Positions 33,478 through 64,000 of a stretch of 64,000 nucleotides of DNA are shown here, piece after piece (position 1 is the stretch's first letter; each line of letters starts with the position of its first letter). The notes below the pieces were generated by a model, which saw nothing but the letters and a program-made list of their open reading frames with translations, had not been told where the DNA came from and did not search any database. Source of the stretch: Caballeronia pedi (lineage in GTDB: Bacteria; Pseudomonadota; Gammaproteobacteria; Burkholderiales; Burkholderiaceae); assembly GCF_001544915.2 (NCBI RefSeq), contig NZ_FCOE02000002.1, forward strand, positions 1 through 64,000. Direction: 5' to 3'. Position numbers and translations under genes: made by a program.

Positions 33478-34416
33478 ATGGCCGACGCTGTGGACCATTA
33501 CTTTGTCGGCTTGACGCAGCAGGCTTCGGCGGGCGGACTCGCGCGACTGCGCGGCCACGGCGCGCCGACGATTCCCGCTTCGCGCGTGTATCCGGTCGGC
33601 CCGCGTTTCAAGGCGTTCGTGCAGCCGCTCGTGACGCTGCTCCATGACGACGATCACGTGCGCGACATCGTGCTGCGTCCCGTGCTCGGGCGCTATGGAT
33701 CGAGTCAGGAACTCTCGGTCGGACTCGAAGTGAAGGCGGCCGTGGGCTTCGACGCCGCCGCGCTCGCCGCCCGCGTGTTCTCGCTCGCAGATGCCGCCGC
33801 GCAAACCGATGCCTTCGTGGGCCGCGTGCTGCCGCCCGGCGAATGGACCGACAACGCGCGGCCCGGCCTCACCGTGATGTTCCGCGAGCCGACGCGCATC
33901 GCCGATACGGTCGAGCTGGTGCGCAAGATCGTCGGCTTTCCGGGCGAAGGCTGGCCGATCGACGGCTTCACGATGATTCCATCGGCGCAAAGCCGCATCG
34001 GCATCGTGCAGGGGCTGCGCTACATCTTTCTTCCGGAAATCAGTATCCGCTGGGACCTCGATCTGCGCGCGCGCCTCGCCGCGAGCGACGACGAGATCGA
34101 CGTGATCCTGCTCGATCAGGCCACGCGCATCGGACGGCTGTGCAAGGCGCTCCAGCAGAACCCGACGATCGAGGCCGCGTGGCTGAGCTGGTTCGACATC
34201 ATGGTCGCGGGCATCGAGGACTATCGCGAGGTGATCGGCGTGCTGGCGGCGGAGCAGGGCGCGCGCGTCGCCGATCCGAAGTCGATGACGCGCATGGTCT
34301 TCTCCGAAATCCTTCAGTTGACGAGTTCGGGCGTGCTGCAAAAACGCCTTGAACATCTCGGCTTCGCCGGCGCGCGCGAGGAACACGCGCGCAAGGTGCC
34401 GAGCGTCGCGGCCTGA
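33478..34416 (+). CDS. unknown protein heading the partner-switching operon
   Basis: A 312-residue soluble protein without signal, membrane segments or a family I recognise. The N-terminal half (ADAVDHYFVGLTQQASAGGL, then RVYPVGPRFKAFVQPLVTLL) appears mixed alpha-beta; the middle has YIFLPEISIRWDLDLRARLA; the C-terminal third is helical (SWFDIMVAGIEDYREVIGVL). It is the first gene of a four-gene + strand run with a SpoIIE phosphatase, an RsbW-like kinase and a STAS protein, 52 bp before the phosphatase start, with AAGGAA before the ATG. Its place suggests an input or output component of that switch, which is inference. Confidence 0.7.
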   Translation: MADAVDHYFVGLTQQASAGGLARLRGHGAPTIPASRVYPVGPRFKAFVQPLVTLLHDDDHVRDIVLRPVLGRYGSSQELSVGLEVKAAVGFDAAALAARVFSLADAAAQTDAFVGRVLPPGEWTDNARPGLTVMFREPTRIADTVELVRKIVGFPGEGWPIDGFTMIPSAQSRIGIVQGLRYIFLPEISIRWDLDLRARLAASDDEIDVILLDQATRIGRLCKALQQNPTIEAAWLSWFDIMVAGIEDYREVIGVLAAEQGARVADPKSMTRMVFSEILQLTSSGVLQKRLEHLGFAGAREEHARKVPSVAA

Positions 34417-34468
34417 GCGCCTGATCCGATATGACCGCACTCCACCTCAACCTCAAACGAAGCAGCGT

Positions 34469-36472: not shown

Positions 36473-36897
36473 ACGTGACCGACACTCTCGACACGCAACT
36501 GGATGCGCAGGCGCCGGATATCGGCGAGCTGGTGAATCGTTTGCAGGCCCTCTTCGATGCGTGCGGCGTGCCGCCCGCGCTGTTCCAGAGCTTCGCGATG
36601 GCGTTCGACGAAGTGATCTCGAATATCGCGGCCTACGGTTCCGCGCACGATCCGATCCGCATCCACGTGACCGTCGGCGCGGACGAAGTGCGTGCCGAAG
36701 TCATCGACGACGGCGTGGCCTTCGATCCGCTCCAGTTGCCCGACCCCGATGTGACGAGCGCGCTCGACGATCGCGCGATCGGCGGTCTCGGCGTCTATCT
36801 GGTCAGAAAGATGATGGACGAAGTGGCCTATGAACGCCGCGAACAATTGAACTGCCTGAGCTTTCGCAAGCGCGTCGCCGCACAGCCGGACGCTTGA
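36469..36897 (+). CDS. RsbW-like anti-sigma factor serine kinase
   Basis: A 142-residue GHKL ATPase. N-box AFDEVISNIAAYG (E48, N52), G1 box VIDDGVAFDP (D80/D81), G2 box GGLGVYLVRKMMD (105-117). It would phosphorylate STAS proteins on Ser and bind either the STAS protein or an output target. Its start overlaps the phosphatase stop (ATGA), and the STAS gene follows 19 bp later, giving a complete switch. No sigma factor gene is in the window, so the output target is not evident. Confidence 0.92.
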   Translation: MNVTDTLDTQLDAQAPDIGELVNRLQALFDACGVPPALFQSFAMAFDEVISNIAAYGSAHDPIRIHVTVGADEVRAEVIDDGVAFDPLQLPDPDVTSALDDRAIGGLGVYLVRKMMDEVAYERREQLNCLSFRKRVAAQPDA

Positions 36898-36916
36898 AGA
36901 TCTACCGAGGAAACCG

Positions 36917-37252
36917 ATGAATATCAACGAAACGCATGAAGGCGAAGTCCTGGTCATCGCCGTGAATGGCCGCATCGACAGCACGTCGTCGAAACCGCTC
37001 GAAGATGTCTTGCCGGAACGCGTGCAGGGCGCGCCGCGCGTGCTGCTCGACATGAGCGACGTGCAGTACGTCAGCTCCGCCGGACTGCGCGTGCTGTTGA
37101 AGGCGGCGAAGGTCGCGCGCAGCACGGGGCATGATCTGGTTCTGGCCGGGCTTCTGCCTCAGGTTCACGAAGTCTTTCAGGTGATCGGCTTCGATTCGCT
37201 GTTCCGCATCCTGCCCGATCGCGCGACGGCGATGGCCGCGCTTGCCAGATGA
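36917..37252 (+). CDS. STAS anti-sigma factor antagonist
   Basis: A 111-residue STAS protein (RsbV/SpoIIAA type). The conserved strand VLLDMSDVQYVSSAGLRVLL holds the phospho-acceptor position S54, two residues before the Gly. VIAVNGRIDSTSSKPLED is the N-terminal STAS signature. It is the third member of the phosphatase-kinase-antagonist set. A ribosome site (GAGGAAA) precedes the ATG, and a strong terminator follows the stop. Confidence 0.92.
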   Translation: MNINETHEGEVLVIAVNGRIDSTSSKPLEDVLPERVQGAPRVLLDMSDVQYVSSAGLRVLLKAAKVARSTGHDLVLAGLLPQVHEVFQVIGFDSLFRILPDRATAMAALAR

Positions 37253-37258
37253 AAATGG

Positions 37259-37292
37259 AAAAGGCCGCCTCATTCGCGAGGCGGCCTTTTTG
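37259..37292. terminator. bidirectional intrinsic terminator
   Basis: AAAGGCCGCCT (37260-37270) and AGGCGGCCTTT (37279-37289) form an 11-bp stem with an 8-nt loop, with A residues to the left and T residues to the right. It separates the convergent partner-switching operon (ends 37252) and hcp1 (ends 37311). Confidence 0.88.
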
Positions 37293-37310
37293 CTTGCTTC
37301 TACAGCCTGA

Positions 37311-37799
37311 TCAGGACTTCGGCGCGAGCCACGAGTCTTCGGCTTCGATGCCGTCCGGCTCGTACGTCCACGTGATCTTCTCGTACGTGAACGACACGTC
37401 TTCCATGTGGCCCATCTGCTTGTTTTCCGGCGACAGGCAGTTCGGCGTCCACGACTGCATGTTGGTCAGGATCGCGTTCGACAGCTTCACGGTGTAGTAC
37501 TTCTCTTCCGTGCCCTTCGGCGAGATGCGATAGAACTCCAGCGTCACATCCTTCATCTGCTCGCCGGACGTCAGCGCCTGGAACAGCTTCGGCGACGATT
37601 TGTCGATTTCCTTGGTGAGCGTCATCGCCTGATGGACGCGCTTGCCGGTCGGCAGGCCCGTTTGCGGGCTCTTCGGGATTTCGATGGTGTGATCGACGGC
37701 CTGGACGAGGATCTTTCCTTCGTGACCCTGAACCTTGGTCGAGCCTTCGATCTTGCCTTGGTTCTGGCCTTCGAGTGAGAGGTAGCACGGCATCGGCAT
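37311..37799 (-). CDS. hcp: T6SS tube protein Hcp, copy 1
   Basis: A 162-residue Hcp (TssD). It starts MPMPCYLSLEGQNQGKIEGS and includes GKILVQAVDHTIEIP, LTKEIDKSSPKLFQAL and the tail GIEAEDSWLAPKS, the Hcp1 beta-barrel subfamily. Hexamer rings stack to the inner tube that is expelled by the sheath. It is 94% identical to the copy at 40786 (9 substitutions in 162) and points the other way. GGAG lies about 9 nt before ATG 37799. The composite element at 37861-37910 lies 62-111 bp upstream. The STAS gene at 38262 precedes it on the same strand. Confidence 0.96.
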   Translation of the reverse strand: MPMPCYLSLEGQNQGKIEGSTKVQGHEGKILVQAVDHTIEIPKSPQTGLPTGKRVHQAMTLTKEIDKSSPKLFQALTSGEQMKDVTLEFYRISPKGTEEKYYTVKLSNAILTNMQSWTPNCLSPENKQMGHMEDVSFTYEKITWTYEPDGIEAEDSWLAPKS

Positions 37800-37860
37800 G
37801 ATTTTTTTCTCCGGTAGTTTCGCGCAGTTCGTTCTGCGCATGGGATGAATTCTGGGTGTG

Positions 37861-37910
37861 CGCCGTTACCGCCACGTTTCAGAAAAACGGGCTCAGGTTA
37901 CGGATGAAAC
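37861..37910 (-). promoter_or_regulatory. composite T6SS element upstream of hcp1
   Basis: Read on -, GTTTCA-TCC-GTAAC (37910-37897), then TGAAAC (37881-37876), then GGCGGTAACGG (37873-37863). TGAAAC begins 29 bp and GGCGGTAAC 37 bp after the start of GTTTCA, the same spacings as at hcp2. CATGCGCAG follows 31 bp after GGCGG in both. The 15 bp between GTAAC and TGAAAC differ between the copies while the motifs are conserved. Confidence 0.65.
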
Positions 37911-37917
37911 ATGGGTT

Positions 37918-38262
37918 TCACGCGACCTGGTTGAAACGTTCGAGCGCGGACGCGCGCGTATCGGCGACGTTGAGAATGTTGAGAAATCCGCTGATCTCGA
38001 AGGCTTCGCGAATCTGGTCGTGCATGCCGCACAGGACCAGCCGTCCCGCGGATTGTTTGAGGCGCTTCGCCGCGATCAGGACGACCCGCAGTCCCGCGCT
38101 CGAGATATAGCCTAGCCCGCTCAGATCGAACAGCACCTGATTGGTGCCCTGATCGAGACGGCGCTGGATGTCGGCCTCGACCTGCGCCGAGTTCATGCTG
38201 TTCAGCGCGCCTTCGAGGCTCACGATGAGCACGTCGCCCTGGACTTCATACTGGTTTGCCAC
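37918..38262 (-). CDS. second STAS-domain protein
   Basis: A 114-residue STAS protein: VQGDVLIVSLEGALNSMNSA, then VLFDLSGLGYISSAGLRVVL with phospho-acceptor position S55. It is related to, but clearly different from, the STAS protein at 36917, and lies on the opposite strand. It precedes hcp1 by 118 bp on - and is divergent from tssB, so it lies at the junction of the signalling cassette and the T6SS operon. It could be a second substrate of the RsbW-like kinase. Confidence 0.9.
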   Translation of the reverse strand: MANQYEVQGDVLIVSLEGALNSMNSAQVEADIQRRLDQGTNQVLFDLSGLGYISSAGLRVVLIAAKRLKQSAGRLVLCGMHDQIREAFEISGFLNILNVADTRASALERFNQVA

Positions 38263-38618
38263 GATGGTCTCTCACGCAATGGCGATATCGCCTCGAAGCA
38301 TTAACGGCAAAGAAACATAAAAGCTTGAGCAATCAGCCGCCGTCAAAACAGTTTCAAGAATTCCGCGGCGCTGTCGTTAATGCCCTCAGCGACAGGAAAG
38401 TCAGCGTATCACGCGGGTTTTGCGCCTAAGGCGCGAACAGAACCCGGAACCCGGTTCTCTTTGCGGCAATGACCGGGGATACAGCATGAGATCGTTCCGT
38501 GTCGCCAGCAGCATGCAAGGAATCAGCGGCGACGGCATTCGCGCACGATCGTGCTGACGCCGTTCAAAGCGGCCTGAATTTTTCATCAACACATTTGGTT
38601 TTGGGTTAGGGGGTAGGC
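38263..38618. promoter_or_regulatory. divergent control region between STAS and tssB
   Basis: 356 bp without a gene. Visible structure: GCATTAACG (38298-38306) and its perfect inverse CGTTAATGC (38375-38383), 68 bp apart; GCGCCT-A-AGGCGC (38422-38434); AGAACC/GGTTCT arms (38439-38458); and the 12-bp palindrome GCACGATCGTGC (38543-38554). No sigma-54 type GG-N10-GC box is clear. This region should drive the main tss operon (+) and the STAS gene (-). The ribosome site GGGGGTAGG precedes tssB. Confidence 0.6.
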
Positions 38619-39113
38619 ATGGCATCTGACGGTTCAGTCGCTCCTAAGGAGCGGGTCAATATTGTGTATCGTCCGGCCACCGGAGATGCCAAGGCGGAAG
38701 TCGAGCTGCCGCTGAAATTGCTCGTACTCGGCGACTTCACCTTGCGCGACGACGATACGCCGATCGAAGACATGAAGCCGGTCAACGTCGACAAGGACAA
38801 CTTCAACGAAGTGCTCAAGGGGCAGAAGCTCTCGCTCGATCTCGCGGTGCCGAACCGCCTCGAAGCGAACGCCGATCCGGAAGCGCAGATCGCGATGAAC
38901 CTGAAGTTCGAGTCCATCGACGATTTCTCGCCCGACGCGATCGTCGAAAAGGTGCCCGAGTTGCGCCAGATGATCGCCCTGCGCGACGCGCTCAAGGCGC
39001 TCAAGGGACCGCTCGGCAACATTCCGGATTTCCGCAAGCGCGTTCAGGAACTGATCGAAGACGAAGGCGTGCGCGCGCGTCTGATGAGCGAACTCGGCAT
39101 CGAGGAAAAGTGA
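38619..39113 (+). CDS. tssB: T6SS contractile sheath small subunit
   Basis: A 164-residue TssB (VipA/ImpB). ERVNIVYRPATGDAKAEVEL, then PLKLLVLGDFTLRDDDTPIE and LPNIPDFRKRV-like C-terminal PLGNIPDFRKRVQELIEDEG are the conserved family blocks. It pairs with TssC to form the sheath around the Hcp tube. First gene of the main + strand operon; tssC starts 1 bp after its stop codon. Confidence 0.97.
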   Translation: MASDGSVAPKERVNIVYRPATGDAKAEVELPLKLLVLGDFTLRDDDTPIEDMKPVNVDKDNFNEVLKGQKLSLDLAVPNRLEANADPEAQIAMNLKFESIDDFSPDAIVEKVPELRQMIALRDALKALKGPLGNIPDFRKRVQELIEDEGVRARLMSELGIEEK

Positions 39114-39114
39114 C

Positions 39115-40602
39115 ATGAGCGACATGGATAAACAACAGGAAGCGACGGCCGCACCCGAGTCCGACGCCAGCCTTTCGCTGCTCGATTCGCTGATCGAGTC
39201 GGCGCGCATCAAGCCGGGCGACGAAGCGTATTCGATCACGCGTCAGGGCATTCAGGCCTTTATCGGGCAACTGCTGGAGCCGCAGAACGCGGTCGAGCGC
39301 ATCACGCAGGCGACGGTCGACAGCATGATCGCCGATCTCGACCAGAAGCTGTGCGCGCAGGTCGACGCGATCCTGCATCACGACGATTTCCAGAAGATGG
39401 AATCGGCATGGCGTTCGCTGAAGTTTCTCGTGGACCGCACGAATTTCCGCGAGAACGTCAAGATCCAGTTGCTGAGCGTGAGCAAGGGCAAGCTGCTCGA
39501 AGACTTCGAGGACGCGGCCGACATCACCAAGTCGGGTCTCTACAAGAATCTCTATACGGCTGAATACGGCCAGTTCGGCGGCCAGCCGTTCGGCGCGATC
39601 GTGGCGAACTACGAGTTCGGCCCGGGCACGCAGGACGTGAAGCTGCTGCAGAACGTGGCGAGCGTGTCGGCGATGAGCCACGCGCCGTTCATCGCCGCTG
39701 CCGGTCCGCATTTCTTCGGCGTCGATACCTACGACCAGTTGCCGAACCTGAAGGACCTGTCGTCGATTTTCGAAGGCCCGCAATTCGTCAAGTGGAATGC
39801 GTTCCGCGAATCGGAAGACGCGCGCTATGTCGGCCTCACGCTGCCGCACTTCCTCTTGCGCGTGCCTTACGGCGCGGATACGGTGCCGGCCAAGAAGTTC
39901 AACTACAAGGAAGACGTGTCGGGCGGCAACAGCCAGTTCCTGTGGGGCAATGCGGCCTTCGCGTTCGCATCGCGCCTGACGTCGAGCTTCGCCGACTACC
40001 GCTGGTGCGCCAACGTGATCGGACCGCAAGGCGGCGGCACGGTGGGCGATCTGCCGGTGTACACGTATGAGTCGATGGGCGAGCTGCAGAACAAGATCCC
40101 GACCGAAGTGCTCATCTCCGAGCGCCGCGAGTTCGAACTTGCCGAGCAGGGTTTCATCGCGCTGACGATGCGCAAGAACAGCGACAACGCCGCGTTCTTC
40201 TCGGCCAATTCCGCGCAGAAGCCGAAGTTCTTCGGCAACACCAAGGAAGGCAAGGAAGCCGAGCTGAACTACAAGCTCAGCACGCAACTGCCGTACATGT
40301 TCGTCGTGAGCCGCCTCGCGCACTACATCAAGGTGATCCAGCGCGAAAACATCGGTACGTGGAAAGAGCGCGTCGATCTCGAAAGCGAACTCAACACCTG
40401 GATTCGCCAGTACGTCGCGGATATGGACAACCCCGCGGAAGGCGTGCGCAGCCGTCGTCCGCTGCGTCAGGCGGAAATCGTCGTGGCCGATGTCGAAGGC
40501 GATCCGGGCTGGTATCGCGTGGACCTGAAGGTGCGTCCGCACTTCAAGTATATGGGCGCGTCGTTCACGTTGTCCCTCGTCGGCAAGCTGGACAAGAAGT
40601 AA
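39115..40602 (+). CDS. tssC: T6SS contractile sheath large subunit
   Basis: A 495-residue TssC (VipB/ImpC) of normal length. Diagnostic stretches are QKMESAWRSLKFLVDRTNFR, YGQFGGQPFGAIVANYEFGP, SHAPFIAAAGPHFFGVDTYD and the C-terminal RLAHYIKVIQRENIGTWKER, followed by RPLRQAEIVVADVEGDPGWY. It forms the outer sheath and is recycled by ClpV after contraction. A 183-bp gap with the composite element separates it from hcp2. Confidence 0.97.
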   Translation: MSDMDKQQEATAAPESDASLSLLDSLIESARIKPGDEAYSITRQGIQAFIGQLLEPQNAVERITQATVDSMIADLDQKLCAQVDAILHHDDFQKMESAWRSLKFLVDRTNFRENVKIQLLSVSKGKLLEDFEDAADITKSGLYKNLYTAEYGQFGGQPFGAIVANYEFGPGTQDVKLLQNVASVSAMSHAPFIAAAGPHFFGVDTYDQLPNLKDLSSIFEGPQFVKWNAFRESEDARYVGLTLPHFLLRVPYGADTVPAKKFNYKEDVSGGNSQFLWGNAAFAFASRLTSSFADYRWCANVIGPQGGGTVGDLPVYTYESMGELQNKIPTEVLISERREFELAEQGFIALTMRKNSDNAAFFSANSAQKPKFFGNTKEGKEAELNYKLSTQLPYMFVVSRLAHYIKVIQRENIGTWKERVDLESELNTWIRQYVADMDNPAEGVRSRRPLRQAEIVVADVEGDPGWYRVDLKVRPHFKYMGASFTLSLVGKLDKK

Positions 40603-40615
40603 GCACGCGAGCCGT

Positions 40616-40663
40616 GTTTCATCTGTAACGCAGCGCGGGAAAACTGAAACCGGGCGGTAACGG
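40616..40663 (+). promoter_or_regulatory. composite T6SS element upstream of hcp2
   Basis: GTTTCA-TCT-GTAAC (40616-40629), TGAAAC (40645-40650), GGCGGTAACGG (40653-40663), matching the hcp1 element in sequence and spacing. A CATGT-GAA-ACATG dyad (40675-40687) follows, and the hcp2 ATG lies 123 bp after the last block. The 183-bp tssC-hcp2 gap is otherwise unexplained. Confidence 0.65.
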
Positions 40664-40785
40664 GTCCCGCGCAACATGTGAAACATGCGCAGCACACACA
40701 AGAGCTGAGCGAAACGCCGGGGCCAGAAGGCCGCGGCGAAACAACCGAAACCCAACATAGTTTGCTACCCAACAGGGGACTTATC

Positions 40786-41274
40786 ATGCCGATGCCGTGC
40801 TACCTCACTCTCGAAGGCCAGAATCAAGGCAAGATCGAAGGCTCGACCAAGGTTCAGGGTCACGAAGGAAAGATCCTCGTCCAGGCCGTCGATCACACCA
40901 TCGAAATCCCGAAGAGCCCGCAAACGGGCCTGCCGACCGGCAAGCGCGTCCATCTGCCGATGACGCTCACCAAGGAAATCGACAAGTCGTCGCCGAAGCT
41001 GTTCCAGGCGCTGACCTCGGGCGAGCAGTTGAAGAACGTGACGCTGGAGTTCTACCGCATCTCGCCGAAGGGCACGGAAGAGAAGTACTACACCGTGAAG
41101 CTGTCGAACGCGATCCTGACCAACATGAAGTCGTGGACGCCGAACTGCCTCTCGCCGGAAAACAAGCAGATGGGCCACATGGAAGACATCTCGTTCACCT
41201 ACGAGAAGATCACGTGGACCTTCGATCCGGACGGCATCGAAGCGGAAGATTCGTGGCTCGCCCCGAAGTCCTGA
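40786..41274 (+). CDS. tssD: T6SS tube protein Hcp, copy 2
   Basis: A 162-residue Hcp in the canonical position between tssC and tssE. It differs from copy 1 at nine residues, including QA to LP after KRVH and YE to FD near the end. Bases 40825-40954 are identical to copy 1, including silent sites. It probably supplies most tube subunits. It has its own leader with the composite element, so it may be expressed above the level of the operon. Confidence 0.97.
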   Translation: MPMPCYLTLEGQNQGKIEGSTKVQGHEGKILVQAVDHTIEIPKSPQTGLPTGKRVHLPMTLTKEIDKSSPKLFQALTSGEQLKNVTLEFYRISPKGTEEKYYTVKLSNAILTNMKSWTPNCLSPENKQMGHMEDISFTYEKITWTFDPDGIEAEDSWLAPKS

Positions 41275-41306
41275 AAGTCCTGATTCAAGCCTGAGCGGGG
41301 GCAACG

Positions 41307-41720
41307 GTGAGAGAACGTCGGCTGCTGGAGCGAATCGCGAGTTGGGGTGCGGGTGGAGCGCGCTCCAACGAAACGCAGATCGATGTTCTCGTCGACTCGG
41401 TGATGAGTCACCTCGGCCGGCTGCTCAACACCCGGCAAGGCAGCGTGCAGATCGACCCGCAATTCGGCGTGCCCGATTTCACCAACCTTGCCGGCACCAC
41501 CGCGATGGGTTCCACACGCGAGATCGAAGAGGAAATACGCCGCATGGTTCTGCGCTACGAGCCGCGCATCAAGTCGCCGCGCGTGACGCTCAACCGCGAG
41601 GAAACCGATGTGCTGTCGATCCGCTTCGCGCTCGAAGGCACGCTCGAAGTGGACGACCGCGAGATTCCGCTGCGCATCTCGACGACCGTGGGCGCGAATG
41701 GCCGCGTAAGTGTCGGCTGA
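41307..41720 (+). CDS. tssE: T6SS baseplate protein, gp25-like
   Basis: A 137-residue TssE, homologue of phage T4 gp25. RRLLERIASWGAGG, then VDSVMSHLGRLLNTRQGSVQ and DPQFGVPDFTN are the standard N-terminal blocks, followed by EIEEEIRRMVLRYEPRIKSP. It forms the baseplate wedge with TssF, TssG and TssK. The start is GTG at 41307 after a G-rich ribosome site; the gene is 32 bp after hcp2. Confidence 0.95.
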   Translation: MRERRLLERIASWGAGGARSNETQIDVLVDSVMSHLGRLLNTRQGSVQIDPQFGVPDFTNLAGTTAMGSTREIEEEIRRMVLRYEPRIKSPRVTLNREETDVLSIRFALEGTLEVDDREIPLRISTTVGANGRVSVG

Positions 41721-41769
41721 TTTCACGCGCTCACTTTTTTCTTTTCCCGATTCAGCCGAGCCGGTCCGC

Positions 41770-43494
41770 ATGTTCAATCGATACTATCAGGATGAGCTGA
41801 ACAAGCTGAAAGGCCTGGCCGCCGAGTTCGCGCGCGCGAATCCGGCGATCGCGCCGATGCTCTCGGGCACCTCGGCCGATCCGGATGTCGAGCGCCTGCT
41901 CGAAGGCGTCGCGTTTCTCACGGGCCTCACGCGCCAGAAACTCGACGACCAGTTTCCCGAGTTCGTTCAGGAACTCACCAATCTGCTGTTTCCGCATTAT
42001 CTGCGGCCCGTGCCGGCATCCACATTGATCGGTTTTGCCGCGAAGGGTCCGCGCGCGCAGGCGGCGCGCGTGGCCGCGGGCACCGAACTCGCATCGGTGC
42101 CGGTGGATGGCACCGCGTGCCGCTTTCGCACCACCTGCGACCTCGATGTCGAGCCGTTGCGCATGGCCGAAGTCAATCTGCTGAGCCACGCAGGCGCCGC
42201 GCCCGTGCTGATGATCGACTTCGAAATGGAAGGCGGCCTGAGCATCGCGCAATGGAACGGCGACTCGATCCGCCTGTTCCTGAACGGCGGCCATGTCGAT
42301 GCATCGAAACTGCTGTTGCTGCTGATGAATCACGTCATCGACGTGCGCATTTCCAGTGGCGGCGGCGAACGGCTTTCGCTCGGTGCGAAGAACCTGCGCA
42401 CGAGCGGCTTCGACGCCGACCTGCTGACGTATCCGAGCCATGCGCCGAGCGGCTTTCGCACCATCCAGGAGTTCTTCGCGCAGCCGGAGAAGTTTCTCTT
42501 CATCGATATCGTCGGACTGCGGCGCTGGACCGCGAACGCCAAGGGTTCGAGCTTCAGCATCGTGATGACGCTCGACGCGCTGCACGACTGGATGCCCGAG
42601 ATCGACGCCGCGAGCTTCGCGCTCAACATCGTGCCGGCGATCAACGTGTTCGCGCATGTCGCGGACCCGATCACGCACGATCATCGCGCGACGGAATATC
42701 GTGTGATCCCCGAAGGGCGCGACCGTCGCCACTATCAGATCTATTCGGTCGATCAGGTGCTCGGCTATCAGCAGGGCCGCGCGCAGGAACGCGTCTATCA
42801 GCCGTTCAGCATGTTTCGTCACGATGGCCGTGGCGCGCAACTGAGCTATCGCACGACGTTGAAGAGCGCGAACGTCGAGCGCGGCAGCGACGTGTATCTG
42901 TCGCTCAACTATCCGCCGTCCGAAACGCCGTTGCCGGAGACGCTGTCGATTCGCGTCACCTGCACCAACCGCGCGTTGCCGGAAGGCCTGAAACCGGGCG
43001 ATATCAACGTGCCGACCAGCACGTCGCCCGACCAGATGAGCTTCACCAATATCCGCGCGATCACGCCCGCGCAGGACCCGCCCGCCGGCGAGGAACTGCT
43101 GTGGTGCCTGCTCTCGCATGTGTCGCTGAACCTGCTGTCGCTCGCGAACGCCGACAACCTGCGCAAGCTGCTCGGCCTCTATGTGTTCGCCGGGCGGCAG
43201 GGGCCGGAAATGTCGAATCGACGCCGTATCGAAGGCATCGTCGACGTGACGGCGACGCGCGAAACGCGCCTCGTGGGCCGTGGCGGCATGCAGCGCGGCC
43301 AGTTGATCCGTATTCGTTGCCGTGAGGACCATTACGCCGGGATCGGCGATCTGTATCTGTTCGGTTGCGTGCTCGAGCGCTTTCTCGCCGATTACGCCGG
43401 CATCAACTCCTACACGCGCGTCGAGCTCGAAGACACGCTTTCAGGGACCGTATTCAAATGGCCGCCGAGACTCGGACAACAACCGATGCTGTAA
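41770..43494 (+). CDS. tssF: T6SS baseplate wedge protein
   Basis: A 574-residue TssF (VasA/ImpG). The start MFNRYYQDELNKLKGLAAEF is the typical TssF beginning (YYxxEL), which is why ATG 41770 is preferred to an in-frame GTG at 41710 that would overlap tssE. DQFPEFVQELTNLLFPHYLR and GGRQGPEMSNRRRIEGI-like C-terminal sequence are conserved. It binds TssG in a 2:1 wedge. Its 3' end overlaps tssG by 37 bp. Confidence 0.95.
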   Translation: MFNRYYQDELNKLKGLAAEFARANPAIAPMLSGTSADPDVERLLEGVAFLTGLTRQKLDDQFPEFVQELTNLLFPHYLRPVPASTLIGFAAKGPRAQAARVAAGTELASVPVDGTACRFRTTCDLDVEPLRMAEVNLLSHAGAAPVLMIDFEMEGGLSIAQWNGDSIRLFLNGGHVDASKLLLLLMNHVIDVRISSGGGERLSLGAKNLRTSGFDADLLTYPSHAPSGFRTIQEFFAQPEKFLFIDIVGLRRWTANAKGSSFSIVMTLDALHDWMPEIDAASFALNIVPAINVFAHVADPITHDHRATEYRVIPEGRDRRHYQIYSVDQVLGYQQGRAQERVYQPFSMFRHDGRGAQLSYRTTLKSANVERGSDVYLSLNYPPSETPLPETLSIRVTCTNRALPEGLKPGDINVPTSTSPDQMSFTNIRAITPAQDPPAGEELLWCLLSHVSLNLLSLANADNLRKLLGLYVFAGRQGPEMSNRRRIEGIVDVTATRETRLVGRGGMQRGQLIRIRCREDHYAGIGDLYLFGCVLERFLADYAGINSYTRVELEDTLSGTVFKWPPRLGQQPML

Positions 43495-44441
43495 AGGCGC
43501 TGCTTCTCACCAACGGTGAGAAGTACTCCTACTTCCAGGCGATCCGGCTGCTGCGGCTGTACGACCGTCACACGGGCCTGAATCAGGAGAATCTGCGGGT
43601 GCGTCCGCGGCTCGGGCTCGGGTTTCCCGAGAACGACATCGATCGCATCGAGGCGACGCCCGAAGGCGGCTATCGGATCACCGCGAATTTCTTCGGCCTG
43701 TACGGTGTGGCCTCGCCGCTGCCGACGTACTACACCGAAGACCTGTTCGAGGAAGAGCGCGAAGGGCACCACGTCACGCGCGATTTTCTCGACATCGTGC
43801 ATCACGCGCTGTATCCGCTGCTCTTCGACGCATGGGCGAAGTATCGCGTCGAGCAGCGCATCGTCGAGGACCGGCACGAGGCGTCGCTCAATCAGTTGTA
43901 CGCGTTCGTCGGGCTGCACGATCCGGAACTGCGCGTCGATCTGCTGCCGGGCAGCGCCGAACTGCTGCGCTATGCGGGCCTCTTCAATCAGCGGCCACAT
44001 TCCGCGCTCGGCCTGAAGACGCTGCTCGCCGATGCCTTCGCGCCCGCCGATGTGAAGGTCGTATGCGGCGTGCTGCGCGCGGTGCCGATTCCCGCCGATC
44101 AGCGCTGGCAGCTCGGCCGGCAGCAAAGCTGTCTGGGCGAGGACACGTGGCTCGGCGCGGAGATCGACGACTACGAAAGCGCCATCCGCATCGAATTCGC
44201 CGACGTGCCGCAAACGCTTTTCCATCAGATGCTGCCGGGCGGAAGCGCGCATGCGCGTTTGCGCTTTTTCACGCGCTTCTATCTGACCGATCCGCTCGAC
44301 GTGGAAGTCGAGCTTCAGCTGCGCGACGACGAAGCCGGCGCGGCGCGCACCGGCCGTGGCGCGTGGTCGCGGCTCGGCTTCGATACCTGGCTCAATCCCG
44401 GCGAGGCGAAACTGCCGACCCGGGTTCATTACTCTCTCTAA
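43458..44441 (+). CDS. tssG: T6SS baseplate wedge protein
   Basis: A 327-residue TssG (VasB/ImpH). YSYFQAIRLLRLYDRHTG, then the FFGLYGVASPLPTYYTEDLF block and DFLDIVHHALYPLLFDAWAK, are family signatures; CLGEDTWLGAEIDDYESAIR follows further on. ATG 43458 lies inside the tssF end, a common arrangement that couples their translation. It joins TssF and TssE in the wedge. Confidence 0.95.
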   Translation: MAAETRTTTDAVKALLLTNGEKYSYFQAIRLLRLYDRHTGLNQENLRVRPRLGLGFPENDIDRIEATPEGGYRITANFFGLYGVASPLPTYYTEDLFEEEREGHHVTRDFLDIVHHALYPLLFDAWAKYRVEQRIVEDRHEASLNQLYAFVGLHDPELRVDLLPGSAELLRYAGLFNQRPHSALGLKTLLADAFAPADVKVVCGVLRAVPIPADQRWQLGRQQSCLGEDTWLGAEIDDYESAIRIEFADVPQTLFHQMLPGGSAHARLRFFTRFYLTDPLDVEVELQLRDDEAGAARTGRGAWSRLGFDTWLNPGEAKLPTRVHYSL

Positions 44442-44486
44442 CCCTGATTGCTGGCCGTTGCTGGAAAGACTAAGAGGAACACAAAC

Positions 44487-47135
44487 ATGCTGCTGGTCGA
44501 ACTGAAGCCCCTGGTGGGCCGCCTCAACGGCTTTTGCAAACAGGCGCTCGAAGATGGCGTCGGGGTGTGCGTATCGCGCGGACACTACGAGATTACGGTC
44601 GAGCATCTGCTCGTCAAGCTGTTCGATGATCAACAGGCCGATATCGCGCTGCTGCTGCGTCAGCAGGACGTCGAGGCGGCGCTCGTAAAGCGCGCGATCA
44701 ACTTGTCGCTCGAACAGATGAAGTCGGGCAACGCCGGACGTCCCGCGTTCTCGCCGCTCTTGCTCGAATTGCTGCAGGACGCGTGGCTGATCTCATCCGT
44801 CGATCTGCAGGAGCCGCGCATCCGTTCGGGCGCGGTGCTGCTCGCGTTCCTCGCGCGCCCGACGTACTACGCGACCGGCGACTACGCCGCGCCGCTGCGT
44901 GCGCTGAACCGCGAAACGCTGATCCGCTCGTTCGATGCGGTCTGCGGCGGCTCCGTCGAAGCCGGCACGCGCGAGGCGCTCGGCGACGGCGCGAGCGATG
45001 CGTCCGCGCCCGCCAGCGGCGACGGCAGCGCGATTGCGCGCTTCTGCGAGAACTTCACCGAGAAGGCGCGCGCCGGCAAGCTCGATCCGGTGTTCGGCCG
45101 CGACGCCGAGATTCGCCAGATGGTCGATATCCTCGCGCGCCGCCGCAAGAACAACCCGATCTGCGTCGGCGATCCGGGCGTCGGCAAGACGGCGGTCGTC
45201 GAAGGGCTGGCGCTGCGCGTGGTCGAAGGCGACGTGCCCGATTCGCTCAGGGACGTGACGATCCTCGGCCTCGACATGGGTCTGCTGCAGGCGGGCGCAA
45301 GCGTGAAGGGCGAGTTCGAGAACCGCCTGAAGGGCGTCATCACCGAAGTGAAGGCGTCGGCGAAACCGATCATCCTGTTCATCGACGAAGCGCACACGCT
45401 GATCGGCGCGGGCGGCCAGGCCGGCACCTCCGACGCGGCCAATCTGCTGAAGCCGGCGCTCGCGCGCGGCGAACTGCGCACCATCGCCGCGACGACGTGG
45501 GCCGAATACAAGAAGTACTTCGAAAAGGACGCGGCGCTCGCGCGGCGCTTCCAGCTCGTCAAGCTCGACGAGCCGGATCTCGACACCGCCGTGCTGATCC
45601 TGCGCGGCCTGAAGGAGAAGTACGAGGACGTGCACAAGGTCGTGCTGCGCGACGACGCGATCGTCGCGGCGGCCGAGCTGTCGAGCCGCTATATCACGGG
45701 CCGCCAGTTGCCGGACAAGGCCGTCGATCTGCTCGACACCGCCTGCGCGCGCGTCAAGGTGCTGCAAAGCGCGAAGCCCGACGTGCTGGAGAACACGGAG
45801 CGCCGCATTCAGGCGCTGCAACGTGAAAAGAGCGGACTCGAGCGCGATGCGGACAACCAGCAGCCCGTCGATCTCGCGCGCCTTCGCGAAATCGATGAGG
45901 AACTGCCGAAGCTCGATGCGCAAGCCGAAGCGCTGCGCGCCGTCTGGCAGCAGCAACGCGACGCCGCCCGCGCCTTGCTCGACGCACGCGCGGCGCGCCA
46001 CGAAGCGAAGGCGAACGGCGTGCCCGCCGATACGCTGGAGTCGCTGTCGCAGGAGATCGCCGCCGCTGCCGTCGCGTTCAAGACGGCGCAGGGCGATCAG
46101 CCGCTGGTTCACATCGATGTCGATCCGGACGTGGTCGCGCGCGTGATCTCGGACTGGACCGGCATTCCTGTCGGCAAGATGCTGCGCGATCAGGCGCAGA
46201 GCGTGATGCGCATGGCCGATACGCTGAAGGCGCGCATCCGTGGTCAGGACCACGCGATGGACCAGATCGCCGAGGTGCTCAAGACCGCCAAGTCTGGCCT
46301 GAAAGACCCCGATCAGCCGATGGGCGTGTTCCTGCTCGCGGGACCGTCGGGCGTGGGCAAGACGGAGACGGCGCTGTCGGTGGCGGACATCCTGTTCGGC
46401 GATGAAAAGTCGACCACCGTCATCAACATGAGCGAGTTCCAGGAGAAGCACAACGTGAGCCGCCTGATCGGTTCGCCGCCGGGATATGTCGGTTATGGCG
46501 AAGGCGGCGTGCTGACCGAAGCGGTGCGCCAGCGCCCGTACTCGGTCGTGCTGCTCGACGAAGTGGAAAAGGCGCATCTCGACGTGATGAACCTGTTCTA
46601 CCAGGTGTTCGACAAGGGCATGTTGTCGGACGGCGAAGGCAAGGAAATCGACTTCTCGAACACGGTGATCTTCCTCACGTCGAACCTCGCGACCGATGTC
46701 ATCACCGAAATGACCGCGGGCGAGGACAAGCCCGACGCGGCGACGCTGCTCTCGGCCGTGCGGCCGATTCTGTCGAATCACTTCAAGCCCGCGCTGCTTG
46801 CGCGCATGACCGTGATTCCGTACTTCGCGCTCGCCACCGACGCGCTTTCCGGCATCGTGCGCCTCAAGCTCGACAAGATCGTGAAGCGCATCGCGCACAA
46901 CAACAAGATGCGCTTCAGCTACACCGACGCCGTGGTTGCGCAGATCGCCGCGCGCTGCACGGAAGTGGAAACGGGCGCGCGCAACATCGATTTCATTTTG
47001 CGCGGCACGGTGCTGCCGTTGATGTCGCAGGAACTTCTCACGCGCATGGGCGAAGGCGTGGCGCTGCCGGAAGTGGCGCTCGACGTGAACGAGAGCGGCG
47101 ATTTCGCCGTGAGCTTTCCCGGCGCGCCGGCCTGA
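44487..47135 (+). CDS. tssH: T6SS sheath-recycling AAA+ ATPase ClpV
   Basis: An 882-residue ClpB-type ATPase. An N-domain (1-150, LEDGVGVCVSRGHYEITVEH) is followed by AAA1 with Walker A GDPGVGKTA (from residue 228), a middle coiled coil (about 440-520) and AAA2 with Walker A GPSGVGKTE (from 619). FIDEAHTLIGAGG and VLLDEVEKAH are the two Walker B boxes. It disassembles contracted TssBC sheaths. AGAGGAA precedes ATG 44487. An 84-bp gap with a variant of the composite element separates it from vgrG. Confidence 0.96.
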   Translation: MLLVELKPLVGRLNGFCKQALEDGVGVCVSRGHYEITVEHLLVKLFDDQQADIALLLRQQDVEAALVKRAINLSLEQMKSGNAGRPAFSPLLLELLQDAWLISSVDLQEPRIRSGAVLLAFLARPTYYATGDYAAPLRALNRETLIRSFDAVCGGSVEAGTREALGDGASDASAPASGDGSAIARFCENFTEKARAGKLDPVFGRDAEIRQMVDILARRRKNNPICVGDPGVGKTAVVEGLALRVVEGDVPDSLRDVTILGLDMGLLQAGASVKGEFENRLKGVITEVKASAKPIILFIDEAHTLIGAGGQAGTSDAANLLKPALARGELRTIAATTWAEYKKYFEKDAALARRFQLVKLDEPDLDTAVLILRGLKEKYEDVHKVVLRDDAIVAAAELSSRYITGRQLPDKAVDLLDTACARVKVLQSAKPDVLENTERRIQALQREKSGLERDADNQQPVDLARLREIDEELPKLDAQAEALRAVWQQQRDAARALLDARAARHEAKANGVPADTLESLSQEIAAAAVAFKTAQGDQPLVHIDVDPDVVARVISDWTGIPVGKMLRDQAQSVMRMADTLKARIRGQDHAMDQIAEVLKTAKSGLKDPDQPMGVFLLAGPSGVGKTETALSVADILFGDEKSTTVINMSEFQEKHNVSRLIGSPPGYVGYGEGGVLTEAVRQRPYSVVLLDEVEKAHLDVMNLFYQVFDKGMLSDGEGKEIDFSNTVIFLTSNLATDVITEMTAGEDKPDAATLLSAVRPILSNHFKPALLARMTVIPYFALATDALSGIVRLKLDKIVKRIAHNNKMRFSYTDAVVAQIAARCTEVETGARNIDFILRGTVLPLMSQELLTRMGEGVALPEVALDVNESGDFAVSFPGAPA

Positions 47136-47136
47136 C

Positions 47137-47174
47137 GTTTCAAACGTAACGCAGTTGAAATCACGCGGTGACCG
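47137..47174 (+). promoter_or_regulatory. composite T6SS element upstream of vgrG, shortened spacer
   Basis: GTTTCA-AAC-GTAACGCAG (47137-47154), TGAAAT (47156-47161) and GCGGTGACCG (47165-47174). TGAAAT starts 19 bp after GTTTCA instead of 29, one helical turn less, while the TGAAAY to GCGGT distance (9 bp) is unchanged. GTTTCA also forms the right part of ACGTTT-C-AAACGT (47135-47147). The vgrG ATG is 46 bp after the last block. Confidence 0.6.
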
Positions 47175-47219
47175 AGCGCCGCAAAAATAGCAGGCATATC
47201 ACCTGTACGGAGAAACAGC

Positions 47220-49871
47220 ATGAACTCACTGGCCGATCGGATGCTCGCCAACAAGCGCTTCGATTTCACGTCGGAAGCGTTTGACGCGGACAAGTTCGCG
47301 GTCGTCGAAATGGAAGGCTTCGAATCGATCTCGCAGCCGTTTCGCTTCGTCCTCACGCTGGTGTCCGCCGATGCGTCGATCGACTTTGACACGATGCTGA
47401 GCCATCGCGCCTCGTTCGTGATCTACGGCCCGGAAGGCGGCATTCGCGCACCGTATCACGGCATCCTGGCCGAGTTCGAGCAACTGCATCGCGTGGACGG
47501 CTACGTGTTCTATCGCGCGGTGCTGGTGCCGCGTCTGTGGCGCCTGTCGCTGTTTCGCGTCTCGGAGGTTTATCTCGACGAGCGGCCGATCACCGAAACC
47601 GTGCGCGGCGTGCTCGAAACCGGACGCCTGAATTCCGCCGATTACGAATTCAAGCTCACCGGCTCGTACCGGCCGCGCACCTTCGTGTGCCAGTATCAGG
47701 AGACGTATCTCGACTTCGTGTCGCGCTGGCTGGAGAAGGAGGGCATCTATTACTACTTCGATCATTCCGGCGGCGCGGACAAGCTCGTCGTGATCGATGA
47801 CAAGCTCATGCACGACGCAGACGCGCTGCCCGTCGCGTACCGTCCGGACGATTCGCTCGACACCGGCCTCGCCGCCGATTCGGTGCGCGACTTCGTGTGC
47901 CGTCAGAAGCCGCTGCCGCACGAAGTGGTGCTGCAGGACTACAACTATCGCAAGGCCGCGGTGCAACTAAAGGCGCGCGCGACGGTTGCGGATGCGGGCA
48001 TCGGCGAAGTCATGCTTTATGGCGAGAACTTCCGCGACCAGCAGGAAGGCGACCGCTACGCGAAGCTGCGCGCGCAGGAACTCATCTGCGGTGGCAAGGT
48101 GTATGCGGGCGAGGGCACGGCGCTTGGCTTGCGCAGCGGCTATTTCTGCACGCTCGCGCAGCATTATCGCGATGATTTCAATGGACGCTATCTGGTGACC
48201 GAAGTGCATCACGAAGGCTCGCAGGCGGGCGCGCTGCTCAACGGCGTATCGAGCCCGTATAGCGACGGTGCGCGCGGCGGGGAAATCGTCTATCGCAACA
48301 GCTTCCGCGCGATTGCCGCCGCGACGCAATTCCGCCCCGAGCGCGCGACAGCCAAGCCGCGCGTGGCCGGCACGATGAACGCGACCATCGACAGCGAAGG
48401 CAATGGCCAGTATGCCGAACTCGACGAGTACGGCCAGTACAAGGTGCAGTTGCCGTTCGACAAGACCGACAAGAACGCCAACAAGAGCTCGGCGCGGCTG
48501 CGCATGGCGTCGCCGTACGCGGGCACGGATCACGGCATGCATTTCCCGCTGCACAAGGATGCGGAAGTGCTGCTGTCGTTCATCGACGGCGATCCGGATC
48601 AGCCGGTGATCGTCGGCAGTCTGGCGAATTCCGAGAACAGCAACGTCGTCACGCAGGACAACGCGCAGGCGAACCGCATCGCGACGGCGGGCGGCAATCA
48701 GTTGCACATGACCGACAGCAAGGGCAAGGAAGCCGTCTGGCTGCATTCGCCGTTTCACAACAGCACGATCGGCATCGGCTCGACCGACGTGAACGGCGGC
48801 GGCAGCCTGTGGACCAGCACGGCGGGCAGCTCGGAAAGCGTGACGGTCGGCGTGAGCAACTCGCTGTTCGCGGGGACGAAGAATTCGCTCACGCTGTCGT
48901 ACGAAGGGTCGCTCTCGGCGTCGATGACCACGAAGGCGTCGTTCGGCGCGAACGTGTCGTTCGGTCTCAGCACCAACGTGAGCTGGAACAAGGGCAAGAG
49001 CATCACCGTCGACGATTCCGACACGGTTTCGCTCAAGACCTCCGGCAAGCTGCAGGGCGCCGAAACGGTGCTGATCTCGGGCGGCCAGGACCCGATCATC
49101 AAGACGACCGTCGATGGCGTGAAGGACTCGATCAAGGGAGCCGTCGCGCTGAGTCTCGCGGTGAACGCGGCCATCGCGCTGGACGCGGGTATCGCGATCA
49201 GCGCGGCCGACGACGCCGGCGGCGGCTCGGGCAAGATCGCGCCGTGGACGCCGGGCAGCTATGGCGTCACGGCGGCGCAGACCGCACTGGGCGGCGCGCT
49301 CACGTCGATCCTCGCGCACAAGGTGCTGTTCGACGGCGCCAAGGCAATCGCCGCCGCGAGCGAGGCCAAGCCGCTCTATGCCAGCAACATCGAACTCGGC
49401 ATTTCGGGCATCAAGGCCACTGTATTGCCGTTGCCGGGCATCGGCTCGACGCTGAACATGTCGCAGTTCGGCAGCGAGTTGTCGGTGGCGAGCGGGCCGG
49501 GCGTGTCATCGAGCGTGGAGGTCGACAGCCTGCAAGTGGTGCTCAAGGCCGGCGGCGCCAACACGACGTGGGTCGATGGCGACGGCGCCGGCACGCGCGC
49601 CGCGACCATCAAGCTGACGGCCGTGTCGGGACTGACGGCTACCGCCGGCGCGGACCTCGGCCTGAAGGCGACCGGCGCGCTCTCGGCGCAGGCGGCCGGC
49701 AACGTGTCGGTGAAGGGCGCGCAGGTGACCATCGACGGACTGGACAAAGTCGCGACCATCTCCACGAACGTGAACGTGGAAGCCGCCAACGCCTTCAGCG
49801 TGACGGCCTCGCAGGTGAAGTTCAACGGCTCGACGGTCAAATTCAACAGCGCGCTGATTCAGCTGGGATGA
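47220..49871 (+). CDS. vgrG: T6SS spike protein VgrG, extended
   Basis: An 883-residue VgrG (TssI). The gp27-like base (1-370: FESISQPFRFVLTLVSADAS, YQETYLDFVSRWLEKEGIYY), the gp5 OB fold (about 385-470: GQYKVQLPFDKTDKNANKSS, DKDAEVLLSFIDGDPDQPVI-like) and a beta-helical spike are all present. It is longer than simple VgrGs: between about 636 and 740 lies an Ala-rich hydrophobic segment (GAVALSLAVNAAIALDAGIA) and a Gly/Ser linker, after which spike-like repeats resume (KATGALSAQAAGNVSVKGAQ) to the end. No enzymatic domain is recognisable. The cargo gene starts 4 bp after its stop. Confidence 0.93.
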   Translation: MNSLADRMLANKRFDFTSEAFDADKFAVVEMEGFESISQPFRFVLTLVSADASIDFDTMLSHRASFVIYGPEGGIRAPYHGILAEFEQLHRVDGYVFYRAVLVPRLWRLSLFRVSEVYLDERPITETVRGVLETGRLNSADYEFKLTGSYRPRTFVCQYQETYLDFVSRWLEKEGIYYYFDHSGGADKLVVIDDKLMHDADALPVAYRPDDSLDTGLAADSVRDFVCRQKPLPHEVVLQDYNYRKAAVQLKARATVADAGIGEVMLYGENFRDQQEGDRYAKLRAQELICGGKVYAGEGTALGLRSGYFCTLAQHYRDDFNGRYLVTEVHHEGSQAGALLNGVSSPYSDGARGGEIVYRNSFRAIAAATQFRPERATAKPRVAGTMNATIDSEGNGQYAELDEYGQYKVQLPFDKTDKNANKSSARLRMASPYAGTDHGMHFPLHKDAEVLLSFIDGDPDQPVIVGSLANSENSNVVTQDNAQANRIATAGGNQLHMTDSKGKEAVWLHSPFHNSTIGIGSTDVNGGGSLWTSTAGSSESVTVGVSNSLFAGTKNSLTLSYEGSLSASMTTKASFGANVSFGLSTNVSWNKGKSITVDDSDTVSLKTSGKLQGAETVLISGGQDPIIKTTVDGVKDSIKGAVALSLAVNAAIALDAGIAISAADDAGGGSGKIAPWTPGSYGVTAAQTALGGALTSILAHKVLFDGAKAIAAASEAKPLYASNIELGISGIKATVLPLPGIGSTLNMSQFGSELSVASGPGVSSSVEVDSLQVVLKAGGANTTWVDGDGAGTRAATIKLTAVSGLTATAGADLGLKATGALSAQAAGNVSVKGAQVTIDGLDKVATISTNVNVEAANAFSVTASQVKFNGSTVKFNSALIQLG

Positions 49872-63962: not shown

Positions 63963-64000
63963 TCAGGTCCACAGATGTTCGATGTCGGTGTCGAAGATAT
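63963..64000 (-). CDS. 3' end of an unidentified gene upstream of tssA
   Basis: On - the last eleven codons before a TGA (63965-63963) read IFDTDIEHLWT. The composition is protein-like, unlike the other two frames of the same strand, and the gene would be in tandem with tssA with a 37-bp gap. Too little is visible to name it. Confidence 0.4.
   Translation of the reverse strand, partial: IFDTDIEHLWT

What the first reader, a model, noticed from the sequence alone, without database searches (positions are those of the whole stretch)
37861..47174. Shared composite DNA element before hcp1, hcp2 and vgrG
Upstream of exactly the three T6SS genes encoding expelled parts (two hcp, vgrG) I find GTTTCA-N3-GTAAC, then TGAAAY, then GCGGTRAC. 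The element is at 37910-37861 (-), 40616-40663 (+) and 47137-47174 (+). At the two hcp genes the spacings are identical (29 bp and 9 bp); at vgrG the first spacing is 19 bp, exactly 10 bp shorter, and the second is unchanged. Between hcp1 and hcp2 the intervening 15 bp diverged while the motifs stayed. GTTTCA and TGAAAC are inverted copies and GTAAC is directly repeated 32 bp apart. This fits a dimeric regulator or an unusual promoter shared by the tube and spike genes.
Basis: seen in the sequence. Interest (0 to 1): 0.8.

Follow-up and report, generated by a model that had tools for sequence, protein, structure and literature searches.

The report
VirG-type switch for T6SS tube genes
Two tube genes and the spike gene of a bacterial secretion weapon carry the same DNA switch, which a profile search found in full at only four places in the whole genome and which is likely the docking site of a VirG-like signal-response protein encoded beside the weapon.

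Summary
All three sites read as described; a fourth copy precedes another hcp on contig C98, and a profile search finds no further full-length site in the 9.14 Mb genome.

Comparison resolves the element as RTTDC-N4-GHAAY, then 16-17 or 6 bp, GHAAY-N6-GHAAY, 10 bp, and a -10 box. The first part matches 12-13 of 14 positions of Agrobacterium's vir box; the rest is an 11-bp direct repeat where a -35 box would be.

A VirG-like OmpR/PhoB regulator and a VirA-like kinase lie beside the cluster, at and past the window end. Of 58 congeneric genomes, the nine with the strict element are the nine with this regulator at 89% identity or more. Nine of nine element-bearing genomes tested outside the genus carry virA-virG-tssA. 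In six genomes with a more distant VirG and no T6SS gene found beside it, 20 of 21 profile matches lie within 7.4 kb of virG.

VirAG control of this T6SS type is known in Burkholderia; I found no description of this operator. Binding and transcript starts are untested.

The parts
37840..37910 (-). Composite element before hcp1: dyad GTTTC(37910-37906)-N4-GTAAC(37901-37897), 16 bp, GAAAC(37880-37876)-N6-GTAAC(37869-37865), 10 bp, -10-like CAGAAT(37854-37849), CAT(37842-37840)
   Evidence: profile E 1.8e-15 (this site is in the training set)
40616..40686 (+). Composite element before hcp2: GTTTC(40616-40620)-N4-GTAAC(40625-40629), 16 bp, GAAAC(40646-40650)-N6-GTAAC(40657-40661), 10 bp, -10-like CAACAT(40672-40677), CAT(40684-40686)
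   Evidence: profile E 4.2e-13 (in the training set)
47137..47197 (+). Composite element before vgrG, short form: GTTTC(47137-47141)-N4-GTAAC(47146-47150), 6 bp, GAAAT(47157-47161)-N6-GTGAC(47168-47172), 10 bp, -10-like AAAAAT(47183-47188), CAT(47195-47197)
   Evidence: profile E 8.8e-9 (in the training set)
37311..37799 (-). hcp1 (T6SS tube protein), single-gene unit: terminator-like hairpin at 37290-37259 follows
   Evidence: Pfam T6SS_HCP; terminator scan
40786..41274 (+). hcp2 (T6SS tube protein), 32 bp before the tssE frame; likely one unit with tssE-F-G-H (inferred)
47220..49871 (+). vgrG (T6SS spike), first gene of a likely unit with DUF2169, pentapeptide and DUF3540 genes (inferred)
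   Evidence: Pfam Phage_GPD and following genes
63963..64000 (-). 3' end of the virG-like response-regulator gene; the gene runs to 64697 on contig C72, followed by the virA-like kinase gene (64694-66880) outside the window

Best explanation
The element is a composite operator and promoter that is likely bound by the phosphorylated VirG-like response regulator encoded beside this T6SS cluster, which would thereby switch on hcp1, the hcp2 unit and the vgrG unit. Shown by sequence: a 14-bp vir-box-like dyad (RTTDC-N4-GHAAY); 16-17 or 6 bp downstream of it an 11-bp direct repeat (GHAAY-N6-GHAAY); a -10-like box 10 bp further on; no -35 box. Inferred: one VirG dimer sits on the dyad and a second sits head-to-tail on the direct repeat, where it takes the place of the -35 box and contacts RNA polymerase, as PhoB is known to do (recalled). 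Inferred: a change of one helical turn (16 to 6 bp) is tolerated because it leaves both dimers on the same face of the DNA. Inferred: the VirA-like membrane kinase sets phosphorylation in response to a signal that is unknown here. Inferred: solo hcp genes far from the cluster join the same regulon by carrying the element.
For: Dyad matches the printed vir box at 12, 13, 13 and 13 of 14 positions in the four own sites. I searched for 'vir box' on the strength of the motif before the regulator was seen. Regulator: best NCBIfam model VirG, 232 bits against 192 for OmpR; kinase: best model VirA-like, 272 bits. Of 25 OmpR-family proteins found in the genome (24 gave an alignment) it is closest to A. 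tumefaciens VirG, 200 against 173 bits, and its recognition helix is identical at 14 of 17 positions, best paralogue 11. The nine of 58 congeneric genomes with the strict element are the nine with the regulator at 89-100% identity. Nine of nine element-bearing genomes tested outside the genus have virA-virG-tssA. In six genomes with a VirG at 54-57% and no T6SS gene found beside it, 15 perfect elements lie in 66 kb around virG, all with gap 16 or 17, and none in three control sets of 77, 46 and 759 kb; genome-wide, 20 of 21 profile matches (E up to 0.05) lie within 7.4 kb of virG. The -10 A and T are invariant in 24 of 24 aligned elements although the scan that recovers all 24 does not look at them. 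In B. mallei, hcp1 and tssA transcripts are undetectable without virG (PMC3795662, passages).
Against: No binding, footprint or transcript start was measured. The regulator and kinase score below the curated VirG and VirA cut-offs (344, 647). Two of the four central bases of the vir box vary. virG sits in the T6SS cluster, so co-occurrence within the genus is not independent of the cluster. The protein search missed two true orthologues, so absences are weak; 3 of the 27 element-negative genomes also have 43-46% relatives. B. savannae and B. cepacia LK29 have the pair but only weak sites before hcp (17/20 and 16/20; chance 2.6% and 12%). G055 has a 49% relative and no element found beside it. 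A Herbaspirillum MAG has a 19/20 element before vgrG without a clear VirG orthologue.
Confidence: 0.87

Rival explanations
1. Another OmpR-family regulator of the genome binds the element, and virG is only a neighbour inherited with the cluster.
For: The genome has 25 OmpR-family proteins, several with similar helices (10-11 of 17 positions shared with VirG); OmpR-type sites are also direct repeats.
Against: The 54-57% VirG relatives in six other genomes have the same element clustered around their own gene with no T6SS gene found beside it. No perfect element lies in 77 kb around the 24 other OmpR-family loci of this genome.
Confidence: 0.07
2. The element is a promoter of an alternative sigma factor set free by the SpoIIE-type phosphatase, RsbW-like kinase and STAS proteins encoded around hcp1.
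For: A full partner-switching set flanks hcp1, and the element has no -35 box.
Against: Seven of the nine element-bearing loci outside the genus show no such set within their 10 kb flanks (Polaromonas, Variovorax, Chitinasiproducens, Herbaspirillum; only P. sacchari does not lack it among the species), while Janthinobacterium has the set and no element found before hcp. The -10 boxes look sigma-70 type.
Confidence: 0.03
3. The likeness is a relic of hcp duplication, or a leader-RNA feature, with no regulator behind it.
For: hcp1, hcp2 and the C98 hcp are paralogues, and CATGCG continues after the element before most of the hcp genes listed.
Against: vgrG, pentapeptide, FUSC and LysR genes are not homologous to hcp yet carry it. 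Spacers have diverged while half-sites and the -10 A and T stay.
Confidence: 0.02

Closest known systems
Agrobacterium vir box, bound by VirG (RTTDCAWWTGHAAY in PMC11351099; TG(A/T)AA(C/T) in PMC10432156; passages seen)
   Same: Outer half-sites RTTDC and GHAAY at the same 4-bp spacing; upstream of promoters; a VirA/VirG-like pair is encoded nearby; recognition helix 14 of 17 identical.
   Different: Central bases differ at 1-2 positions in the four own sites; here a direct repeat GHAAY-N6-GHAAY at a fixed distance is part of the element. One Ti-plasmid site with the same layout is a weak match only (E 0.013). Targets are T6SS genes in beta-proteobacteria.
VirAG control of T6SS-5 (T6SS-1 of B. 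mallei/pseudomallei) in Burkholderia (PMC3795662, PMC6335564, PMC6394029; passages seen)
   Same: Same T6SS type and gene content with virA, virG and tssA alongside; hcp depends on virG.
   Different: The passages seen give no DNA site; two Burkholderia hcp promoters examined here keep only weak sites and their VirG helices differ. tssBC is induced by BprC there.
PHO box and ArcA-type direct-repeat operators of OmpR/PhoB regulators (PMC4415409, PMC3798270; passages seen)
   Same: 11-bp direct repeats; ArcA sites carry further repeats one or two helical turns away (11 or 22 bp).
   Different: Different half-site sequence; the upstream part here is an inverted, vir-box-like pair.

Membership tests
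vir box operator | Outer half-sites RTTDC and GHAAY 4 bp apart | tested here: met
   10 of 10 outer positions in the four own dyads
vir box operator | Central AWWT | tested here: not met
   2-3 of 4 central positions in the own sites; 14/14 boxes occur near the more distant VirG relatives. Hence filed as a variant, not as a vir box proper.
vir box operator | Bound by phosphorylated VirG | not testable with these tools
   needs footprint or gel shift
VirG (NCBIfam NF010430) | Score at or above the curated cut-off | tested here: not met
   232 bits against 344, though VirG is the best-scoring model. Called VirG-like.
VirA-like kinase (NCBIfam NF010411) | Score at or above the curated cut-off | tested here: not met
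   272 bits against 647, best-scoring model
OmpR/PhoB response regulator | Receiver plus winged-helix Trans_reg_C domain above Pfam cut-offs | tested here: met
   92.8 and 70.3 bits (cut-offs 30.2, 26.2)
OmpR/PhoB direct-repeat operator | Head-to-tail repeats 11 bp apart | tested here: met
   GAAAC-N6-GTAAC in hcp1 and hcp2, GAAAT-N6-GTGAC in vgrG
Burkholderia VirAG-controlled T6SS-5 | virA, virG and tssA beside the T6SS cluster | tested here: met
   printed gene order in PMC6335564 (passage)
Burkholderia VirAG-controlled T6SS-5 | hcp expression depends on virG | not testable with these tools
   shown in print for B. mallei only
Ordinary sigma-70 promoter | Recognisable -35 hexamer 16-18 bp before the -10 | tested here: not met
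   scan of 36800-47300 finds none at the elements
Partner-switch sigma promoter | Element occurs only with the SpoIIE/RsbW/STAS set | tested here: not met
   element without the set in the held flanks of Polaromonas, Variovorax, Chitinasiproducens and Herbaspirillum loci

The most novel reading that the evidence does not exclude
A VirG-type composite operator is a portable promoter code of beta-proteobacteria, seen from Caballeronia and Paraburkholderia to Herbaspirillum, Variovorax and Polaromonas. It slaves scattered hcp, vgrG and pentapeptide cargo genes to the kinase of one T6SS, and in sister systems it governs FUSC-type efflux, LysR and cytochrome bd genes. Its two spacings, one helical turn apart, are alternative settings of one two-dimer machine that replaces the -35 box.
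Probability: 0.6. Interest if true: 0.7.

Novelty: new variant of a known kind. Interest (0 to 1): 0.6.

Why it matters
VirAG is known to switch on this T6SS type in Burkholderia, but the listings and passages I saw give no DNA site for it. A defined operator makes that control testable base by base, lets VirAG regulons be read from genomes, solo hcp genes included, and ties T6SS control to the operator type known from Agrobacterium's DNA-transfer genes. In print, tssBC of the Burkholderia cluster is induced through another regulator, BprC (PMC6335564, passage); no element was found before tssB here, so tube and sheath may be set separately.

Tried and rejected
Sigma-54 and ECF-type promoters: set aside by eye around the elements; no scan was run. 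Partner-switching control: see rivals. A strictly tube-and-spike role: weakened by pentapeptide targets in G022 and by targets near more distant VirG relatives. An element before tssB or virA in this genome: only 9-of-10 fragments. Spacing tied to gene type: rejected by P. sacchari hcp2 and a Herbaspirillum MAG vgrG. Element in Burkholderia sensu stricto: weak only. One 19/20 match near another own hcp (L111) lies 1.3 kb downstream of it and is taken as chance. No structure was predicted; family and helix comparison seemed enough.
Full report
WHAT IS THERE. The window lies on contig C72 of a 9.14 Mb genome (G000) whose closest named relatives in the searches are Caballeronia. The genome holds one more full copy, before an hcp on contig C98. 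With the gap left free between 5 and 35 bp, the two-part pattern gave 28 matches in 10 of 398 Burkholderiaceae genomes and none for the reversed control. Recounted, the gap from GTAAC to GAAAY is 16 bp in 23, 6 bp in 4 and 17 bp in 1; 22 precede hcp, 4 precede vgrG, 1 is cut by a contig end, and 1 (G155) precedes a receiver-domain gene. In this genome 3 of 12 hcp and 1 of 7 vgrG genes have the element.

ANATOMY. Twenty-four elements from Caballeronia, Paraburkholderia, Chitinasiproducens, Herbaspirillum, Variovorax and Polaromonas were aligned. All 24 are recovered by the half-site scan, which does not look at the -10 box, so that box is a free test. The architecture is RTTDC-N4-GHAAY; 16 or 17 bp (6 bp in the short form); GHAAY-N6-GHAAY; 10 bp; then a hexamer whose second base A and sixth base T are invariant in 24 of 24 (for example CAGAAT, CAACAT, AAAAAT, TAATCT, TATCCT, TAGACT). 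A CAT follows 5 or 6 bp later in 20 of 24. The 16 and 6 bp forms differ by 10 bp, one helical turn. One search tried 43 gap lengths over 78 loci (about 1.3 Mb). Perfect (20/20) matches: 30 at gap 16 and 3 at gap 17, plus one at 27 that is a shifted reading of the Variovorax site; 31 of these 33 sites precede hcp, one is at a contig end and one is the G155 site. Matches at 19/20: six at gap 6 (five before vgrG, one before hcp) and eleven at other gaps, of which three precede hcp at gap 17, one precedes vgrG at gap 16 and one precedes hcp or vgrG at gap 27. No sigma-70 promoter with a -35 box is predicted at the elements.

THE LEAD TO VirG. The dyad resembles the Agrobacterium vir box. I searched for that term from the motif alone before any regulator had been seen. 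The printed consensus is RTTDCAWWTGHAAY (PMC11351099, passage); the own boxes match at 12 (hcp1), 13 (hcp2), 13 (vgrG) and 13 (C98 hcp) of 14 positions. Reading past the window end showed, next to tssA, an OmpR/PhoB-family response regulator whose best NCBIfam model is VirG (232 bits; OmpR 192; VirG cut-off 344) and a MASE1 membrane kinase whose best model is VirA-like (272 bits; cut-off 647). It is 45.6% identical to A. tumefaciens VirG over 97% of its length. Of 25 OmpR-family proteins found in the genome, 24 gave an alignment to that VirG; this one is closest (200 bits, next 173), and its recognition helix YDRAIDVQILRLRRKIE is identical at 14 of 17 positions, the best other paralogues at 11.

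CO-OCCURRENCE. Of 58 congeneric genomes, the nine with the strict element are the nine with this regulator at 89-100% identity. A tenth, G037 (69%), has correctly spaced elements that the strict pattern misses, before three hcp genes. An eleventh, G055 (49%), has none in the 20 kb read. Outside the genus I gave 37 of the 72 loci to a protein search; 36 genomes were held. Of the nine element-bearing ones (eight at 19/20 or better; L050 at 18/20, found by the matrix), seven gave the regulator at 63-82% identity; in the other two it was found through the kinase, at 61%, beside virA and tssA. So nine of nine carry virA-virG-tssA. Of the 27 others, four had a match: B. cepacia LK29 at 57% beside tssA, and three with relatives of 43-46% (44, 43, 46). 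Because the same search missed two true orthologues, absences are weak evidence; and since virG lies in the cluster, the genus result is not independent of the cluster.

AN INDEPENDENT TEST. Six Burkholderiaceae genomes (G155, G169, G321, G345, G309, G380) have a VirG relative at 54-57% with no T6SS gene found in the 11 kb around it. Those 66 kb hold 15 perfect elements, 8 with gap 16 and 7 with gap 17, out of 43 gaps tried. Three control sets hold no perfect element: 24 loci of other OmpR-family genes of this genome (77 kb), 13 loci of its other hcp and vgrG genes (46 kb, one 19/20 match), and 48 hcp loci L055 and L057-L103 (759 kb, three 19/20 matches; L095 and L101 among them come from species with the pair). 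At the 19 sites with 19/20 or better and gap 16 or 17, the hexamer at the -10 position has T at its sixth base in 19 and A at its second in 15. The profile model R1, trained on T6SS elements only, was then run over these whole genomes: of 21 matches with E up to 0.05, the 20 best (E up to 0.0105) lie within 7.4 kb of virG and one (E 0.023) lies elsewhere. Genes behind the elements include FUSC efflux, LysR, cytochrome bd subunit II, a TatA-like protein and receiver proteins. I regard this as the strongest evidence that the element belongs to VirG rather than to the T6SS as such.

GENOME-WIDE SPECIFICITY. In 61 relatives R1 gives 33 matches at E 2.9e-6 or better, all in eight genomes, each with the regulator; the next match is at E 0.013 (the tool says its filters lose some weak matches at that size). 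In the own genome there are four full matches (E 1.8e-15 to 8.8e-9), all four in the training set, then partial ones from E 0.08. So no fifth strong site was found. In G022 further matches precede pentapeptide-repeat genes, at 19/20.

LIMITS. Burkholderia savannae and B. cepacia LK29 have the pair but only weak sites before hcp (17/20 and 16/20; chance per random 320 bp 2.6% and 12%). Their recognition helices differ (FDRAVDVQIWRLRKKIE and FDRTIDVLIWRLRKKIE), which would fit a shifted specificity but is untested. A Herbaspirillum MAG has a 19/20 element before vgrG without a clear VirG orthologue. On one Ti plasmid the only match is weak (E 0.013), intergenic, with 13 of 14 vir-box positions and the 16-bp gap. 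Nothing here measures binding or transcription.

HOW IT LIKELY WORKS. Tandem 11-bp repeats are the usual operator of this family (PHO box, PMC4415409, passages), and ArcA sites carry extra repeats one or two turns away (PMC3798270, passages). I infer two VirG dimers, one on the dyad and one on the direct repeat, the latter in the place of the -35 box; that PhoB works so is recalled. In B. mallei hcp1 and tssA transcripts are undetectable without virG (PMC3795662, passages), and virAG overexpression is used to switch on T6SS-5 in B. thailandensis (PMC6394029, passages). The T6SS-5 review lists the same neighbouring genes and says that BprC induces tssB-5 and tssC-5 (PMC6335564, passages); no element was found before tssB here.

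NOVELTY. Searches of an open-licence library showed no description of a VirG site before T6SS genes; most subscription papers are not held, and of the papers listed I saw passages of 15. The link between VirAG and this T6SS type is known; the operator and its architecture are what is added.

Noticed in passing
window 34349-38262: A full partner-switching set surrounds hcp1: a SpoIIE-type phosphatase with a Cache-like sensor region (34349-36472 +), an RsbW-like HATPase (36469-36897 +) and two STAS proteins (36917-37252 +, 37918-38262 -). It recurs in other Caballeronia, in P. sacchari and, elsewhere in the cluster, in Janthinobacterium. Its target is unknown.
   Followed up: partly
L254-L259 (G155, G169, G321, G345, G309, G380): A second VirA/VirG-like system with no T6SS gene found beside it has the same composite elements before FUSC (fusaric or aromatic acid) efflux, LysR, cytochrome bd subunit II, TatA-like and receiver genes.
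   Followed up: partly
L155:9195-9791 (contig C98): A solo hcp outside the cluster carries the element; solo hcp genes with it also occur in other Caballeronia and in Herbaspirillum robiniae.
   Followed up: yes
window 37842 and 40684, and the hcp elements: CATGCG or a close form continues downstream of the element before most hcp genes but not before vgrG; it may mark the start of the hcp leader RNA.
   Followed up: no
L272:1255 and L274:1063 (G022): 19/20 elements with the 16-bp gap precede two 330-residue pentapeptide-repeat proteins.
   Followed up: partly
L271:342-398 (CP048550.1:75841-75897): An intergenic Ti-plasmid site, about 20 kb from virG and upstream of a hypothetical gene, has a 13/14 vir box and the same 16-bp gap to a GAAAT repeat, but scores weakly (E 0.013).
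   Followed up: partly
L200 (B. savannae) and L101 (B. cepacia LK29): In Burkholderia sensu stricto the hcp element is weak and the VirG recognition helix carries a Leu-to-Trp and an Arg-to-Lys change, a possible co-variation of protein and site.
   Followed up: partly
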